DNA from: Strongyloides papillosus
Taxonomy: Eukaryota > Nematoda > Chromadorea > Rhabditida > Strongyloididae
Length of the DNA: 64,000 bases
Assembly: GCA_005656395.1 (NCBI GenBank)
Contig: SRSI01000068.1
Location: 62,001 to 126,000 of the forward strand
Reading direction: 5' to 3'
A program made the position numbers and the translations under genes. Shown in pieces: positions 15,949 to 25,362 of the stretch (the stretch's first letter is position 1; each line of letters opens with the position of its first letter). The notes under the pieces are model-generated. The model had not been told where the DNA came from. It saw only the letters and a list, made by a program, of their open reading frames with translations, and did not search any database.

Positions 15949-17784
15949 TATATCTAAAGTTATAAATTCTAATAATTATTGTTACCATATTGTTACGTAT
16001 TATTAATTATTTTTTTTATTATTTGAAGTTAATATTTTGTTAATAAAATTTTTGTACTAATGATTGAAGTATCATGAAAGAAATAATATAAAAGAGTGTA
16101 GTAATTACTATAATATTTTATTTAGATCAAAAATATACATAAAAATCTATAGGAAAGATTAACAAAATAATAGTAATAAAAAAAGTACAGAATTTAATGA
16201 ATAACACTGACAGATTTGACAAATTTATTATTTAACATTATATTGAAATAACTTCCATTTAACGTTTTCAGTCATCATAAAATATGTTAAATCAATGTTT
16301 ATTTTTTCAATAGTAAACATAAAATAACCAACAAATCTTCTACCTCCCAGCCTTACAGTACTTAATTATTTTGTAAATATTTTCTACTAATAAAAATAAC
16401 GAATAGTATTTTATTAACCCTCCCCCTTGAAAGTGCTCCAAGGTCTTTCCAATTAAATATAATTCTTAATAACGTAATCACTTAAAAAAGAATGTACTTA
16501 TAAAAAATACTCATTAATTTTGTTTACAAATAATGATTCAATTTATGGAATATCTTATTATAACTTACTAGGAATGTGTTTTTTACTATTTAAAAATGTG
16601 AAAAATATTTAATCACAATTCAAAGTTTGTCTAATATATATTTATACTTTTTGATATTATCATGGAAGTGATAATTGTCAAACAAATAGTGACTATAAAT
16701 ATTTAATGAAAAACATGCTACTATAATTTTGTATAATAATAAAAATTAAAAGTTTTATTCAAAAAATTACTAACATACTCTTACTAAATATAAAATTTAC
16801 ATTTACAAGAAATAATACTTTAAAATTAAATTAATATAATCGTAAATTCAGATTAGAAACCTCTTATTTACGTATATAAAAGTAAAGTAGAATTTTGAGA
16901 ATGTACTACTATAGAGTTGTGTTTGAAATTGAAAAATAATTCAAGTAATAATAATACTGATAATTAATAATGTATATGGAAAATGTATGGCTTCAAAAGA
17001 ATAATTTAATTCACTTTTTTTTTAACTTAAATTCTTCGATAATGTACATAATCGTAACACAAAGCTAATTAATGAATGAATAGTTAATTTTATAGCATTT
17101 TTTTTAAATCTATTTTTGTATGAGTCACGAACAAGACATCAAAATATAAAATATATTAAATATTTTGTTAGTTTAATAATTTATTATGAACATTATATGT
17201 TTTATACCATTGAGTACTTATTTTGTAACATGTTTTTTAAAATAATTATATAGAGAAAAGGCTAAATATAATCTTACTTATTTTTCATTGACAAAATCGA
17301 GAAAAAACTATAAACATATATAAAAGTACCATACAAATATAATTTTTAATTATGTTTTTGTGATAACTGTCCCTCAAATTCAACATTTCATTTCTATTAT
17401 TAATAGTGTTTCTAGAATATGACAAATCAAATGTTTAGTATTCTCATAAAAGTATATTTATATGTGAAATATTGCTTTTATCCCTTACTAAATATAATTT
17501 TTTTTTCGAAGCTAACAAATTTACACGTACATTTTTCTCTTGGTCCTTTTCATTTATTATCATCAAGTGATAAAAATCATTTATCTAATAAAATTTTCAA
17601 TCTCCATTAATCCATTTATATTTTATGGGTGAGTCAGAAGTATATAATGTAATTGAGATTAATGGTAAATATAAACCATTTTGAAAATATTTTTTTTAAT
17701 TTAATGGCTTCTTACTATACGTGAAATAGTTTGGTGGAAAGTAAATATATTATTTCGATTCATTTCAGGTAGTAATTAATTAAT
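15949..17784. other. AT-rich intergenic region
   Basis: No conserved coding frame. The open frame at 17419-17610 is a hydrophobic AT-rich translation without a domain or good codon pattern. The last part is presumably the promoter of the membrane protein gene at 17785. Confidence 0.6.
16042..16047 (+). terminator. Candidate polyadenylation signal of the coiled-coil gene
   Basis: AATAAA about 95 nt after the stop codon at 15948, in AT-rich DNA where chance matches are frequent. Confidence 0.4.
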
Positions 17785-18604
17785 ATGTATCTAACCAAAC
17801 TTTTCTTCAACGTTGTATCATGTGTAAGTTTATCATTCTTCTTTTTAATATTCCTTCTAGTATGCTAACGCTGTAAATGTTGATTATGGTGTAAAATATA
17901 ATTCATCACTCGGTGAATTTTTCGATGTTGCCTGTGGACTTGATGAAAAATTAATCAATAACACATACAACTTTAATAATGCTTTTAAATGTCAATCTCC
18001 AAGTAATTTTCTAAACCTGGAAGAAAAAATGCCCGTGGAGTGTAGACTTACAGATGGAATAAATTACCATTGCACATATAATCACTTTGAGCACAAAGAA
18101 GGATGTAAATCTCTTCCTGAACTTTGTGAAATTGCATATTTACGATGTCTCAATCATACTACAATTAATGTACCTGTTGAAATTAAAACAACACAACCTA
18201 CAACGACAAGCAAACTGATAAATGATCTTAAATATAGAGCTGAGATGGAACAATCAAATTTTTCACAACGCACCAACAATGTTATACGCCAAACAACTAC
18301 CCGACCTGAAACAACAACAAATTATCCTGAGACATTACCATCGACAACGAAAATCATTGTAATATCAACAACTGAACCAAATTACCTCGAGACTACCGAT
18401 AATTACTCTGCTTCCTCACTAATATTTGTCTACACAAATCTTGAAGATGAATATCATAATGAATTTATCTACGATTTGACTTTTTTTGTAATGTCACTTA
18501 TCACTATTATCATCTGTTTTCTCTATGTCAAAAGAAGATTCACCAAAAAAGGCAATGCTTATGAACTTGTTGATATATCGTCCAGTAGAAGTTTTTCTTC
18601 CTAA
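17785..18604 (+). CDS. Putative secreted-route single-pass membrane protein with seven-Cys ectodomain (paralogue A)
   Basis: Two exons, 17785-17823 and 17861-18604, joined across a 37-nt GTAAGT...CTAG intron; 260 residues. I do not recognise a named family. Visible parts: a hydrophobic start (MYLTKLFFNVVSC) that may be a signal peptide; an ectodomain with seven cysteines at 38, 57, 74, 84, 95, 102 and 109; a Thr-rich, mucin-like stalk at about 115-205 with several N-x-S/T sites; a transmembrane helix at about 219-237; and a short basic then Ser-rich cytoplasmic tail. The first exon is 13 codons ending in Cys, the same as the gene at 24599, whose Cys spacing matches closely, so the two are paralogues. 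A surface receptor, ligand or coat protein is possible, but no function can be assigned. The small first exon supports this start. Confidence 0.7.
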
Positions 18605-19069
18605 AAAATTTCTCAAGACAATAGTATCTCATTAATTATTACCTTCAAATTTCAATAAAATTTCTTAGATATCTTTTAGTTTATAACGTTATACTCCTTT
18701 CAACATTTATTTCGAATACTCCTCTGACAAATTAATTTTGTCTCTCTCCACGCCAAATGTTTTTTCAAATAAAATAGATATACATAGTGTTCATGATGGT
18801 CATTGTGTCACTTAATTTCGTTAACACTTTTCTATTTTAAAAGAAAAGATTTGGGCGTTGTCGCTGACATTTTGATGAAATACATTGCGTTCAAAAGAGT
18901 ATTAAATTTACTATACCTAAACATTATAAAAATCAAAGTCCATGATCTCTCACTGATTATTGAAAATTTACCACAGTTCTTTTTGTTCTAGAGTTTTCTT
19001 TTTATCACTAAAATTCGACAGTAAACGCCTGAATTATTGGAATATCGTAATACTATCCCAAATTTTAAG

Positions 19070-19081
19070 GGTATAAATACC
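19070..19081 (+). promoter_or_regulatory. Palindromic TATA-like element upstream of the Argonaute
   Basis: GGTATAAATACC, a TATA box inside a small inverted repeat, 177 nt before the Argonaute start. The same 12 bases occur at 63784-63795. The role in transcription is inferred from sequence alone. Confidence 0.4.
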
Positions 19082-19240
19082 TTTAGCCTTTCGAAATTAT
19101 CATTTTAGAATTTTAGTGATATGTTATGAGGTGGTTGTCATCCATATTATCGTTGTCTATCTCAACATTGCATATTTTTCCTACGCGTTTTATTTCAATT
19201 TTTATCTCGATTACCTTCTTCATTCAATCTTATTAATACA

Positions 19241-19250
19241 TTTTTTCTAG
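19241..19250 (+). promoter_or_regulatory. Candidate spliced-leader trans-splice acceptor
   Basis: TTTTTTCTAG ends 7 nt before the Argonaute ATG with no matching upstream donor exon seen. This fits a nematode trans-splice site, or a 5' UTR intron end. Confidence 0.4.
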
Positions 19251-19257
19251 ACTTATT

Positions 19258-21956
19258 ATGGAGTTCCCAGACGTTAATGATATAACGGACAAATTTGAGA
19301 AGGTTGAAATCTGCCAGAAGCTCAACCCATCTGAATACTATAAGGATACATGTCGTGGTCAGGTTTCGGCATACCCACTACAGATTGAGAGGACTGCTGT
19401 CGCGTACAGGTACAGCGTATCTATCTCCCTCACAAAGGAGAATTTTCGTAAGATGTTAACATCAACAAATGATTTAGAAGTGTAAGTTTTTCTCAATCTT
19501 TTTTCATGATGGTTGTGTTTTTCAGTAAAATGATTGGAAGTAAGCAAGCTAGGAGGGAAACTTGTATGACGGCTGTGGACCACACTATTAAGGATCTGCA
19601 AATTCCTGACATCCAGTACTGTTATGATGGTGTCTCTAATTTGATTACCAACAAGGAGATAGACAACACCGAAGTCGTTATTCCAGGAAGTAGATTCCCA
19701 GAGGACTGTCATGGCTTGATTAGGAAATGCTCTGTATCTGTAGAATTGGCACGCTGCACGGACGACTTCGTAATCCCCATTGGACAAAAGAACATTCTTC
19801 TAAATGACGCCCTCTCTCAGAAGCAGAAGCTCATATACAACTGCTTGGAGATGATTACGTCGCAGTACGCCCTCAACAACAAAAAGTACTTCTCCAACAA
19901 CAACAGGAGTTTTCATATGGCCGGCAGGGAGTTCGACGAAGATATTGGAAACGGGAAGATTCTAAAGCCAGGTGTCTGCAAGAGCGTTCGCTTCATCGAG
20001 TCAAATGATCAGGAGCAAGTACGTGCCGCTGTCTTCTTGGATATGTCAAAGAATGTATTTTACAAGGATGGCAACCTTCTTGATGTTATTATGGATATTA
20101 CGGGAAAGGATGAGGTAAAGCGACTTAGTTTGGCGGATTACAACTACGCTCTCGAGTGCCTTGAGGGGGTCCTTGTCACTCCATCGTACAGGAATGCTGG
20201 TGATTCTTTTAAATTAAAGGAGTTTTCAAAGGAGAGCTTAAAGGACTGTTACTTCAAAGGAAGAGACGACGACAATGTCTCCATCATTGAGTACCTTGAG
20301 AACACCTACAAGATAAAAATTCTCCATCCGGATATCCCAGCAGTGGTTGTCAAGGCTCATGGACAGATTAACTACTACCCTATATGCCAATTGAATATCT
20401 GTCCTGGACAAACAGTATCCCTTCAAAAAATGGATTCTGAGTCTTCTGTTTGTCAGCAGTCGAACAACACAGTTAAACCGTACGTCCGTAAAAACGAGAT
20501 CACCAAACACTTAATGGGTCTCGGACTTCTTGATGTAAATAGTAATAGCGTAATGAAAGGATTTGGATTGAAGCTTCTTCCTCATGCGATCAACATTAAG
20601 TTAAAAATACGCGAGCCTCCACAAATCTTCACTGGAGATGGACAAGTCTACCCTGATGACAAAGGTATATTCTCTGATGCCTTTCGTCAAAGATTTGCTG
20701 AACCTGCAACCATCAAAAAGTGGGTTCTGGCATATAATCGCTCCGTAACAAAAAGGAATGCTGAGGACTTTTGTCGTGAATTGGTCCAGATGGCAAAGCA
20801 AAAAGGAATGGTCATCGACTATCCTGTTGAAATCGTTGAACTCTTAGATGATCCCCAGGAGTTGAAAAAGTTCATGAAGGCTAAGGCTAACGACAAAGTC
20901 AAGTTTATCATGCATTTGGAGCCAAAAGCCATCTTGAGTCACGACTTGTTGAAGTATTATGAGACCAAGTATAATGTATTGACCCAACAGGTCACAAAGG
21001 AGTTGGTTGAAAATATTCTTACTAAAAGGCAGCGCCAGTCACTTGGAAACGTCATTAATAAGATGAATCTAAAGAATGGTGGACTTAATATAATGACTAA
21101 AAATGAACCTGCTGCTAAACGCATGTGTATGTCCAATAATGAGAACTTTATTATTGGTTATTCTCTCTCACATTCTAAGTTCAATGGAGATCCAAGTGTC
21201 GTAGGGTATTGTGGCAACTTTGCTCCCAACCCTCACAATTTCGTCGGCGACTTCTTCTTCCAGTACAGTAGGAAGCACCAAATTGATGCTCAATCTCTTG
21301 AGAATAGTTTTGCTGACGTTTTGAAGAGACGTGCTGCAAATAGGAGGGGTATAACTGAACCCCCTAAACGTATCATCGTACTTCGTGATGGGTTGACTGA
21401 TGTACAATTCAAGGATGCCATTCACAGAGAGATTAGTGCTTTGCGTGCCGCGTGTGAACGTTTCCAACCTGGCTACAAGCCATCCTTCGTTATGATTGTT
21501 GTAAATAAGCACCACAATAAGAGATTCTTCGGAATTGACTCCAATTTTATCTCAACTAACTTTGCTCCTGGAGTCGTTATCGATACGGGCTGTACCAGAG
21601 CTGACTACACTGAATTCTATCTCCAAGCTCATCGTCCTCTACTTGGAACTTCGAAGATCCCTCAATATTCTGTCATTGTTAATGAGTGTGATGTAACCCT
21701 TGATGAGTGCCAAGCTCTTATTCTTGCTTTGTCTTTCTCTCATCAAATTATTTCAAATTCCGTCTCTTTACCAGAACCTATCTACCAGGCTGGGGAGTTG
21801 GCCAAAAGAGGCAACTATCTTTTTGCTGTTATGAAAAAGGAGGATGTAACAAGATTGACCTACGTTGAGGACACTGGTCAAATCAACTTGACAGAGTTAA
21901 ATAATAATTTATGTTATAATAAGACAAAGTTTGCTGACAATCGTGTCACAGCCTAA
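19258..21956 (+). CDS. Argonaute-family protein, slicer-deficient, WAGO-like
   Basis: Exons 19258-19481 and 19526-21956, 44-nt intron, 884 residues. Order: N-terminal domain; PAZ at about 325-370 (ends near YPICQLNICPGQ); MID with a 5'-end pocket; PIWI from about 615. The MID pocket reads H547, K551, Q562, K587 where human AGO2 has Y529, K533, Q545, K570. In PIWI the first catalytic Asp is Ser (S621 in GYSLSH), the second Asp is kept (D696 in LRDG), and the last position (His or Asp in slicers) is Ser (S790 in QYSVIV). It should therefore bind guide RNA without cutting, as proposed for worm-specific Argonautes of secondary small-RNA pathways; the exact clade cannot be set here. Codon use is visibly richer in C/G-ending codons (AAC, TTC, AAG) than neighbouring genes, suggesting strong expression. 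It sits between the two seven-Cys genes. Confidence 0.9.
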
Positions 21957-24598
21957 ATATTTTTTTTTAATTTTTGTATATATTTATAATATATTGTATG
22001 TTAATTTTTGTATGTTAAGATCTAATTTGTAATAAAGTTGACATTTAGTCATAATACCTCTATTTTTATATCTTATTATGAAGAAATCTACTTCAATGTT
22101 TAAATATTCCAACTTGAAAGTGCAAAATTTTTAAATAAACAATAAAAACAATGTGATGTAATTATTTTTTTTTACTTAACACTATCATTAAGCTGATAAA
22201 TATAAAGTACTTATAGCTATTATATTACAAGAATTGTTATAGATTATATGATATAACCCATTATTAAATAAAATAAGTATCATCAAAAATAAATTTAACT
22301 TCATTAAAACTTTTTAAATGTCATCATTCAAAAATGTATGTAGATAAGAAATTTTTTATACCACAAAATTATTGCTTTAAATAATTGTTAGTTGATTGTC
22401 TATCACTCCTAAACACCAATATCAAATATCAACGATTTTTTATGCTAATACTTTTTATTAAATAAAGTTATAAATCACTTATCATTTAGATATCAAAGGC
22501 GCTAAATTTCACACTTTATATATTATTGTTGTTTTGGGTCTAAAAAATAAGTAAACAATGTATTGTGTTCTTAAGATGATGGAATTTGAGGAATTATTAT
22601 TTAGATGATTTTTTTTGTTAAATATTTGAGGATGAGCAAATTTTTTCTTTGATTAACAATAAATTTGATATGCCGAATGATTTAGTGGGGTAGCAGGTAG
22701 ATGAACATTGTGTTGTTGTTTGATTTTTTAGTTATATTAGGTTACAGATAATATATAAAAATCATATTTTTAAAAAATATGTTTTATTATATTTTTATCT
22801 TATTAAATTTTTACTTTTTTTCCTCTAAATTTGTCTAATCAATTAACTAAAAAAATTTTGTTTATTAAAAAAGTTATTAAATATAAACGTTGTTGCGAGG
22901 TTTATTTATTCTACTCTTTTGTATGCTAATAATGTAGTAGCTTCAAATGGTTTTTTTACTTAGAGATAAATTCTATTAAATATTTAATTTAAATGACTAC
23001 TATTGATAATCATTTTTTGATATAATTTTATAATGCTTTGATATTAAGCTAATTCCAGTGACTGAAATTTATTGGATTATAAGTTAAACTATCTTTATAA
23101 CATAGTATTTCGAAATACATTTGAATTTTCACCCACAATACTCTTTGGAATATCAAAAATTATCTATATATAAATTAAATGTTGTTGAGAAAGTCTCATT
23201 TTACGGAACGTTTTAAATTATCGCTAATAAGATTACATTATTTATATTTTATCATGTTTTACATTTTATAATATCATAAAAATATCTTTTAAAAAGCATT
23301 ATTATGTTTTGAAAAGGTAATATTTGTCATTATTGTTACACCAATAAATAAAAGTTTTAAGAAAATTAATAGTTATTTTAATTACTCCATAAAATTTCCT
23401 ATTTAGAGAAAGATAATTTATTGCGTAATATTTTAAATATACTATTTCAAATGCCCCAATTGATTGGAGAAAATAAGTTTAAACTATTATTGATAAAAAG
23501 TATCACAATTCATGTGACATAGAATCATATGTTGTATCTGTTAATGGTCCAAACAAACCCAACAACATAGACTACCGTACCATTATTAATCGAACCACAC
23601 CTCTAGAATCTGTTTATTTTAGAAATATTTAAATAAAAATCTTTACTTGATAATAACGTGTAAAAATAGATATATGAACTTTGCGTTTTATGTTATTATT
23701 TTATACTTTTTAACCTTTACTTATTTTGTTTTAAATAAAAATGCGAAGTAATCACTAGAAACATAATAACATCAAAAAGTTTTTTATATATAAATACATT
23801 TTACCCTAAAGAATAAACTACCCACGATAAATTTCTTATCTCTATTTATAAATTTAAACTTTAGATACTTAAAAATTTTTATAATCTTAATATTTAGCGA
23901 TATGATTTTTTTATCACAATAAAGTATAACAAGTTAATTATTTTTATATGCATTAATCCATAATTCTTAGAATAACAAACATATAAAATACGACTCTATA
24001 ATCTTTTACATTTCTATTAACAAACACTTTCACATATCACATCAATACGTGAATGATAAAATTTTTATTTTCTTCCTAAAATTTCTTAAACAACAATGCA
24101 TGTGATGTCATATCTCACTGAAAAAGATGTGTATTGTTTTTACCAAATATAAGATTTTTATTTTATACTTATTCTAAGATTTTTATCTTTCTTGTTGTTT
24201 TTTGAAAGTTTTTAGATAAATCCCGAATCCAATATATTTCGTAATACTATAAATTTAGTCTAATTAACCTGAATAACAAAAACATCACCAACAAAAGTTA
24301 TCTAATTATTTATGTATTCACAAATTCATTGAAACACCTAATCTAATCATATGTCTGTTGAAACAAAAATTTCAAAAGAGTCAAATACATTTCCTATAAA
24401 ATTAATCATTTATTACGACTTCTTATCATCTCCTAAATATATTTTGATTATTGTTTCATAATCAATCAAAATAGTATCTATTAATAGCCTCTTTATTCGT
24501 GTTCAGATTTTTTTAGCACCCAAAAAAATGGATAACGTATCATTTTCATAATTTGTTTAACATCTCTTTAAATTTTAGGGTAGAAGAAGATATAACTT
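21957..24598. other. AT-rich intergenic region
   Basis: About 2.6 kb between the Argonaute and the second seven-Cys gene. No open frame with recognisable coding character, no RNA gene, and no repeat beyond simple A/T tracts was seen. Confidence 0.6.
22031..22036 (+). terminator. Candidate polyadenylation signal of the Argonaute gene
   Basis: AATAAA 75 nt after the Argonaute stop codon. Confidence 0.45.
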
Positions 24599-25362
24599 AT
24601 GTTTTATGTTAATGTCGATACTTTTGCCGCAATTTGTGTAAGTTTATTAATACCTTAAATGTATTAGATTATCCACCTTAGTTTACCTCGTCAATAAGTT
24701 TTTTTGAAAACTCTTTAGATAATGTTGAAAATACACATTCTTGGGAGATTTTTTGCCCGGACTTTGATGTTATAGATCGGGAACAGATAAAACTTAATGG
24801 GGATTTTAAATGTTATTTTGATACTTTAAAATTTAATCCTTTTATTACGGAGTGTGAAGATGAGAATGGGCTATTATACTCTTGCTACTATAAAGATTGT
24901 AAAGATGAGTATGATGAATTGAATGATAAACGCTGCCAAACACTTGTCTTGGAATGCTCAGAAAAAAATGAGGATAATGTTAAATCACAAAAAAGTATTT
25001 ACTCATATAATGTTTTATCATTTGGTAACAAAACAGTTAGAAAAAACAACATTAAATTTGGAGATTTTACTGTAAATAGTGAAACGGAAGTTCTTAATTT
25101 CAATAACGAGGAAGGTAATAAACCACCGGTTAGTCTTACTTCAAGAAAGTATTCACACGACAATACTTCAATGGAAAAAGAAAATGTTTCGATGCTCAAA
25201 GTATTTGATAGTTTCATTAATTATATAATTAACGGTAATGAAGAAATTGAGAACATAATTAAATTGAAAAAATGTATATATTCACCATTATGTCAAATAG
25301 TATTTGCCTCAATTATTTACATAATTTTATTTATTTTCTGCATAAACATCAATATAAGATAA
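24599..25362 (+). CDS. Putative single-pass membrane protein with seven-Cys ectodomain (paralogue B)
   Basis: Exons 24599-24637 and 24682-25362 with a 44-nt intron; 239 residues. The first exon is 13 codons ending in Cys, as in the gene at 17785. Ectodomain cysteines fall at 38, 57, 71, 81, 86, 98 and 105. The C-x18-C, C-x9-C and final C-x6-C spacings equal those of paralogue A, and matched residues include FKC, EC and Y-x-C. An Asn/Ser/Lys-rich stretch of about 100 residues follows, without the Thr-rich stalk of A. A transmembrane helix at about 213-235 leaves almost no cytoplasmic tail. The N-terminus is only moderately hydrophobic, so the signal peptide is less certain than in A. Function unknown. 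The 3' end converges on the DOCK gene, whose stop codon lies 82 nt away on the other strand. Confidence 0.65.

What the first reader, a model, noticed from the sequence alone, without database searches (positions are those of the whole stretch)
17785..25362. Undescribed-looking family: two seven-cysteine, single-pass membrane proteins flanking an Argonaute
The proteins at 17785-18604 and 24599-25362 are too divergent for casual recognition but share a strict plan. Each has a 13-codon first exon ending in Cys with an intron at the same place, ectodomain Cys at identical residues 38 and 57 (C-x18-C), a shared C-x9-C, a final C-x6-C, seven ectodomain Cys in total and one C-terminal transmembrane helix. 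One Cys has moved (95 in A, 86 in B) and A gained a Thr-rich stalk. I know no named domain with this spacing. The pair may be a lineage-specific surface or secreted family evolving fast around a conserved Cys frame.
Basis: partly seen in the sequence, partly recalled or inferred. Interest (0 to 1): 0.75.

Follow-up and report, generated by a model that had tools for sequence, protein, structure and literature searches.

The report
Two Strongyloides-only, cysteine-rich membrane protein genes
Two neighbouring genes of a parasitic roundworm encode small single-pass membrane proteins with a matching cysteine pattern; one has relatives across the genus and a leader sequence that did not change, the other is probably its distant copy, and the RNA-silencing gene between them looks like a mere neighbour.

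Summary
The anatomy is confirmed: A (17785-18604, 260 aa) and B (24599-25362, 239 aa) each have a 13-codon first exon ending in Cys, seven core cysteines with the stated spacings and one C-terminal hydrophobic helix. Relatives were found only in Strongyloides: A in S. papillosus, S. venezuelensis, S. stercoralis and S. ratti, B in the first two. Core cysteines are invariant within each gene. No Pfam or PDB family fits. That A and B are paralogues is likely but unproven: BLASTP and profile comparisons are not significant, shuffle and Cys-frame tests are borderline to moderate, the shared exon plan and closeness add weight. Two points change. The Cys core is a slow part (70% and 62% identity to S. 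stercoralis and S. ratti), the stalk the fast one (26% and 19%). And the leader MYLTKLFFNVVSCY is identical in all 5 A sequences from four species. A also keeps a Yxx-phi tail that B lacks. The Argonaute looks like a chance neighbour and has probably lost slicing. Structure prediction failed (pLDDT about 36), so fold comparison stays open. A mildly interesting orphan family.

The parts
17769..17784 (+). short 5' leader of gene A after a TTTCAG acceptor-like site (possible trans-splice site)
   Evidence: sequence read directly; inference
17785..17823 (+). A exon 1, MYLTKLFFNVVSC, putative signal peptide; with Y14 identical in 5 of 5 A proteins (four species)
17824..17860 (+). A intron, phase 0, GTAAGT...TAG, 37 bp
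   Evidence: P0001-P0004 run through the junction
17861..18604 (+). A exon 2: seven-Cys core (residues 34-114), Thr-rich stalk (115-212; 20 Thr of 98), hydrophobic helix (about 213-236), tail with YELV (residues 247-250, bases 18560-18571)
19258..21956 (+). WAGO-like Argonaute between A and B (exons 19258-19481 and 19526-21956, read by eye); neighbour, not judged part of the family
   Evidence: (Piwi, PAZ)
24579..24598 (+). short 5' leader of gene B after a TTTTAG acceptor-like site
   Evidence: sequence read directly; inference
24599..24637 (+). B exon 1, MFYVNVDTFAAIC, putative signal peptide; residues 1-23 identical in 3 of 3 B proteins (two species)
24638..24681 (+). B intron, phase 0, 44 bp
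   Evidence: P0005 and P0006 run through the junction
24682..25362 (+). B exon 2: seven-Cys core (34-107), stalk with little Thr (5 of 101), hydrophobic helix (about 214-235), almost no tail

Best explanation
A and B are most likely anciently diverged tandem paralogues of one Strongyloides-restricted family of type I membrane proteins. Shown by sequence: gene structure, Cys positions, one hydrophobic helix, the species in which relatives were found. Inferred: a signal peptide (exon 1 plus a few residues) sends the protein into the secretory pathway; the seven-Cys core folds into a small disulphide domain with one odd Cys that could pair with a partner or a second copy; in A a Thr-rich, probably O-glycosylated stalk holds it off the membrane, and the tail motif F-T-x-K-x3-Y-E-L-[V/M/F] gives a Yxx-phi sorting signal, so A would be an endocytosed or recycled cell-surface receptor or binding protein. 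B kept the core plan but has neither tail nor Thr-rich stalk, so it would sit at the surface without that signal. The Argonaute between them is a chance neighbour.
For: Relatives found only in Strongyloides. Core Cys invariant in 5 of 5 A and 3 of 3 B proteins. Identities of window A to S. stercoralis / S. ratti: leader 14/14 and 14/14, core 57/81 and 50/81, stalk 27/105 and 19/98, as expected of a functional domain on a spacer. Yxx-phi tail in 5 of 5 A. Paralogy: same phase-0 intron after codon 13, same strand, about 6 kb apart; in local alignment with B only 2 of 2000 (S. stercoralis A) and 14 of 2000 (S. ratti A) full shuffles score as well; semiglobal 25 and 27 of 2000.
Against: Window A against B is near chance: 162 (local) and 105 (semiglobal) of 2000 full shuffles score as well, 294 and 231 with Cys fixed; with Cys fixed the other two A give 27-76 of 2000. 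BLASTP E 0.61, 0.089 (S. ratti A) and 0.43 (S. stercoralis A; its best stretch is membrane helix). hhalign 1.9%. The A profile does not list B among the 12 best shown of 258 ORFs plus their reversals. The 5 A sequences stand for four species and include a near-identical pair; the 3 B for two. Signal peptide, glycosylation and sorting are read from sequence only; B's leader holds Asn5 and Asp7 and is a weak one. The AF2 models differ in the second half of the core, but at pLDDT about 36 neither counts.
Confidence: 0.55

Rival explanations
1. A and B are unrelated orphan membrane proteins that look alike by convergence: two secreted Cys-rich proteins with a signal-peptide exon of the same length.
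For: No significant sequence or profile match between them; random Cys frames reach the observed agreement in 1.9 to 7.9% of trials; first exons 14 of 39 bases identical; different tails and stalks.
Against: Same intron codon and phase, neighbours on one strand, several weak agreements at once; shuffle tests with S. stercoralis and S. ratti A are better than chance.
Confidence: 0.25
2. A, the Argonaute and B form a functional cassette, for example membrane proteins that take up or send out small RNA for the neighbouring WAGO-like Argonaute.
For: Order A-Argonaute-B; S. venezuelensis A and B carry UniProt accessions two apart (A0A0K0EU64, A0A0K0EU66), which fits one gene between them (inference, not checked). 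WAGO-like Argonautes are raised in parasitic females (PMC5979966, abstract and passages seen); whether this one is among them is unknown.
Against: The Argonaute copies on C7 and C1 carry no intact A or B in the 10-kb stretches read; the C7 copy has only a frame-shifted 3' end of A. No B was found in S. stercoralis or S. ratti. I see nothing in A or B that suggests RNA binding.
Confidence: 0.05
3. They belong to a known domain that profile searches miss, such as the SUEL-type lectin named by UniProt for the S. stercoralis protein.
For: The UniRef name of P0003.
Against: No SUEL/Gal_Lectin family among the 6 families listed for the 8 proteins at E up to 10 (HMMER's filters drop most matches above 0.1). 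The other relatives are named Fam-e, PIR and Variable surface protein, names that I recall from Plasmodium-type families and take to be automatic and contradictory.
Confidence: 0.12

Closest known systems
Strongyloides proteins A0A0N5CF02 (S. papillosus), A0A0K0EU64 (S. venezuelensis), P0003 (S. stercoralis) and SRAE_1000010600 (S. ratti)
   Same: relatives of A: same leader, core Cys, C-terminal helix, Yxx-phi tail
   Different: 97, 85, 47 and 41% identity over the alignment; stalk very different in the last two
A0A0N5CBH0 (S. papillosus) and A0A0K0EU66 (S. venezuelensis)
   Same: relatives of B
   Different: 97 and 82% identity; none found in S. stercoralis or S. ratti
SUEL-type (rhamnose-binding) lectin domain
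   Same: small disulphide-rich extracellular domain, by name only
   Different: no profile match; its sequence motifs, as I recall them, are absent
Conotoxin-like precursors (recalled; only a search listing seen)
   Same: constant leader before a faster-changing remainder
   Different: here the fast part is a stalk, the Cys core is fairly slow, and the product is membrane-anchored

Membership tests
One family A+B | significant sequence or profile similarity | tested here: not met
One family A+B | alignment better than shuffles | tested here: inconclusive
   three A sequences, two alignment modes, three kinds of shuffle: between 294 and 0 of 2000 score as well
One family A+B | same intron position and phase | tested here: met
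   no RNA evidence
One family A+B | same fold and disulphide pairs | tested here: inconclusive
   (models of P0001 and P0005): pLDDT 35.5 and 36.6
SUEL-type lectin | profile match | tested here: not met
   8 proteins, E up to 10 within HMMER's filters
Type I membrane protein | N-terminal signal peptide | tested here: inconclusive
   N-terminus judged by eye; no predictor at hand; B's leader is weak
Type I membrane protein | one C-terminal hydrophobic helix | tested here: met
   hydropathy; helix at that place in both models
Slicing Argonaute (the neighbour) | catalytic Asp and His residues | tested here: not met
   against Argonaute-2 and Argonaute 10: first catalytic Asp aligns with Ser and the His with Gly; one Asp is kept; the Glu was not checked (catalytic positions recalled)

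The most novel reading that the evidence does not exclude
The 13-codon first exon of A is not just a signal peptide: its complete constancy across four species, while the membrane helix falls to 29-38% identity, marks a second constraint, such as an RNA-level element in exon 1 or a leader peptide with its own role after cleavage.
Probability: 0.15. Interest if true: 0.6.

Novelty: new member of a known kind. Interest (0 to 1): 0.33.

Why it matters
If A and B are one family, it is a genus-restricted set of surface proteins in gut parasites whose public names (Fam-e, PIR, Variable surface, SUEL lectin) contradict each other. A was found in all four species that the search returned, so it is a fair candidate for a Strongyloides-specific surface function. 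The constant leader is an oddity that genome data of other species could settle quickly.

Tried and rejected
Pfam gave only weak, unrelated matches (best E 0.0088, one member each), PDB by sequence one weak match (E 0.066), Rfam none over the window. An own-genome search with S. ratti A returned only A itself (4 candidates scored; it missed even the C7 piece, so distant members could be missed). A degenerate exon-1 pattern and plain DNA searches with the two exon-1 regions found single places only. A scan of 258 ORFs of at least 80 aa from the window and 17 loci (mostly surroundings of Argonaute genes) showed no third member; one loose Cys-motif hit in L022 on the minus strand was not followed. 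No fold search was run, because both models are below pLDDT 40. dN/dS and DNA-level constancy of exon 1 were not tested: by their descriptions none of the collections open to me holds other nematode genomes, and I did not search them for any. Literature: no held paper names SRAE_1000010600; a term search for an orphan or surface family in Strongyloides (at least 4 of 6 terms) listed one unrelated paper. I considered A plus Argonaute as a mobile unit and set it aside, since the C7 copy begins inside A and looks like a segmental copy.

Full report
What is there. The window lies in a 58.2-Mb assembly of 79 contigs. The two proteins are 97% identical to Strongyloides papillosus entries, so it is S. 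papillosus or a very close relative (inference). Core cysteines are at 38,57,74,84,95,102,109 (A) and 38,57,71,81,86,98,105 (B). Both starts lie 16 and 20 bases behind an acceptor-like TTTCAG or TTTTAG, which fits trans-splicing (inference).

Range. Two single searches (E up to 1) and one profile search (E up to 10) against about 5.8 billion proteins found 4 relatives of A (S. papillosus, S. venezuelensis, S. stercoralis, S. ratti) and 2 of B (S. papillosus, S. venezuelensis) and nothing else (279, 119 and 1772 candidates scored). The search needs shared 5-residue words, so distant relatives may be missed. In the own genome A has a broken 3' relative on C7 and B a 3' piece on C52; S. ratti A as query returns only A.

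Where the constraint lies. For window A against S. stercoralis and S. ratti: leader 14/14 and 14/14; spacer 4/19 and 3/19; Cys core 57/81 and 50/81; stalk 27/105 and 19/98; transmembrane 7/24 and 9/24; tail 7/15 and 6/15. Fourteen invariant columns at the very start came up in 0 of 20,000 column shuffles of the whole alignment; any run of 14 or more in the first 120 columns in 28 of 20,000 shuffles of those columns. The 5 sequences include the near-identical window and S. papillosus pair, so they stand for four species. The tail keeps Y-E-L-[V/M/F] in 5 of 5. B against S. venezuelensis: leader 23/23, core 70/74, stalk 71/101, transmembrane and end 25/31. So the fast part is the stalk, not the Cys core.

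Are A and B related? Against: BLASTP E 0.61, 0.089 and 0.43; hhalign probability 1.9%, E 0.026, over the stretch FKC...EC...Y-x-C-x-Y; with the B profile A ranks 7th with E 0.83 among 258 ORFs and their reversals, and B is not among the 12 best shown for the A profile. Mixed: shuffles of B scoring as well as the real B, of 2000, in the order window A, S. ratti A, S. stercoralis A. Local: full shuffle 162, 14, 2; Cys fixed 294, 27, 29; Cys moved 34, 6, 0. Semiglobal: 105, 27, 25; 231, 73, 76; 33, 18, 1. A random Cys frame is as close in 1.9-7.9% of trials. For: same intron codon and phase; neighbours on one strand. The tests were chosen after seeing the pattern and are not independent. I put paralogy at about 0.75 by judgement.

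Structure. AlphaFold2 on 4 A relatives (P0001 first) and 2 B relatives (P0005 first) gave mean pLDDT 35.5 and 36.6. Weak strands fall at similar places in the first half of the core and then differ (A a helix at 98-111, B strands). I draw nothing from this.

Neighbours. The Argonaute between them has Piwi and PAZ domains; against Argonaute-2 and Argonaute 10 chains the first catalytic Asp aligns with Ser and the His with Gly, so it is probably not a slicer. PMC5979966 (abstract and passages seen) reports WAGO-like Argonautes raised in parasitic females of four species; PMC9203780 (passages) repeats this. Whether this gene is one of them is unknown. The C7 copy (window 18257-18904 at 82.7% and 19121-22143 at 89.5% DNA identity) carries an intact 827-aa Argonaute frame and a frame-shifted 3' end of A beside 7TM genes, of which the one tested matches Srx receptors; the C1 copy matches over the Argonaute alone (79.9%); the C52 copy starts inside B at 25182 and runs through the DOCK gene at 98.0% to the end of the stretch fetched. 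Complete A and B were found only here (the genome search scores the best candidates only).

Mechanism. The best reading is a pair of type I surface proteins: secretory leader, small disulphide core with an odd Cys, a spacer, one helix. A has a mucin-like stalk and a sorting tail and so could be an endocytosed or recycled receptor or binding protein; B lacks both. All functional steps are inferred.

Verdict. It is an undescribed genus-level orphan family of ordinary build, with one real oddity, the constant leader exon.

Noticed in passing
17785-17826: Leader of A, residues 1-14, identical in 5 of 5 proteins from four species although overall identity falls to 41-47%.
   Followed up: partly
L014 (C7:2264001-2274000): Segmental copy of the 3' end of A plus the whole Argonaute beside 7TM receptor genes (one tested, Srx-type); Argonaute frame intact, A piece frame-shifted.
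   Followed up: partly
L015 (C52:20001-30000): 98% copy of part of the DOCK gene with a truncated end of B; the DOCK frame is split in two there, while B's 60 residues are only 80% identical.
   Followed up: no
19258-21956: WAGO-like Argonaute lacking two of three slicer residues checked; 25 Piwi matches (genes and fragments) listed in the genome, several with stops, six of them on C35.
   Followed up: partly
18530-18574: Tail of A with a Yxx-phi motif present in 5 of 5 A proteins and lacking in B.
   Followed up: partly
UniRef names of P0001-P0006: Relatives bear contradictory names: Fam-e, PIR, SUEL-type lectin, Variable surface protein.
   Followed up: partly
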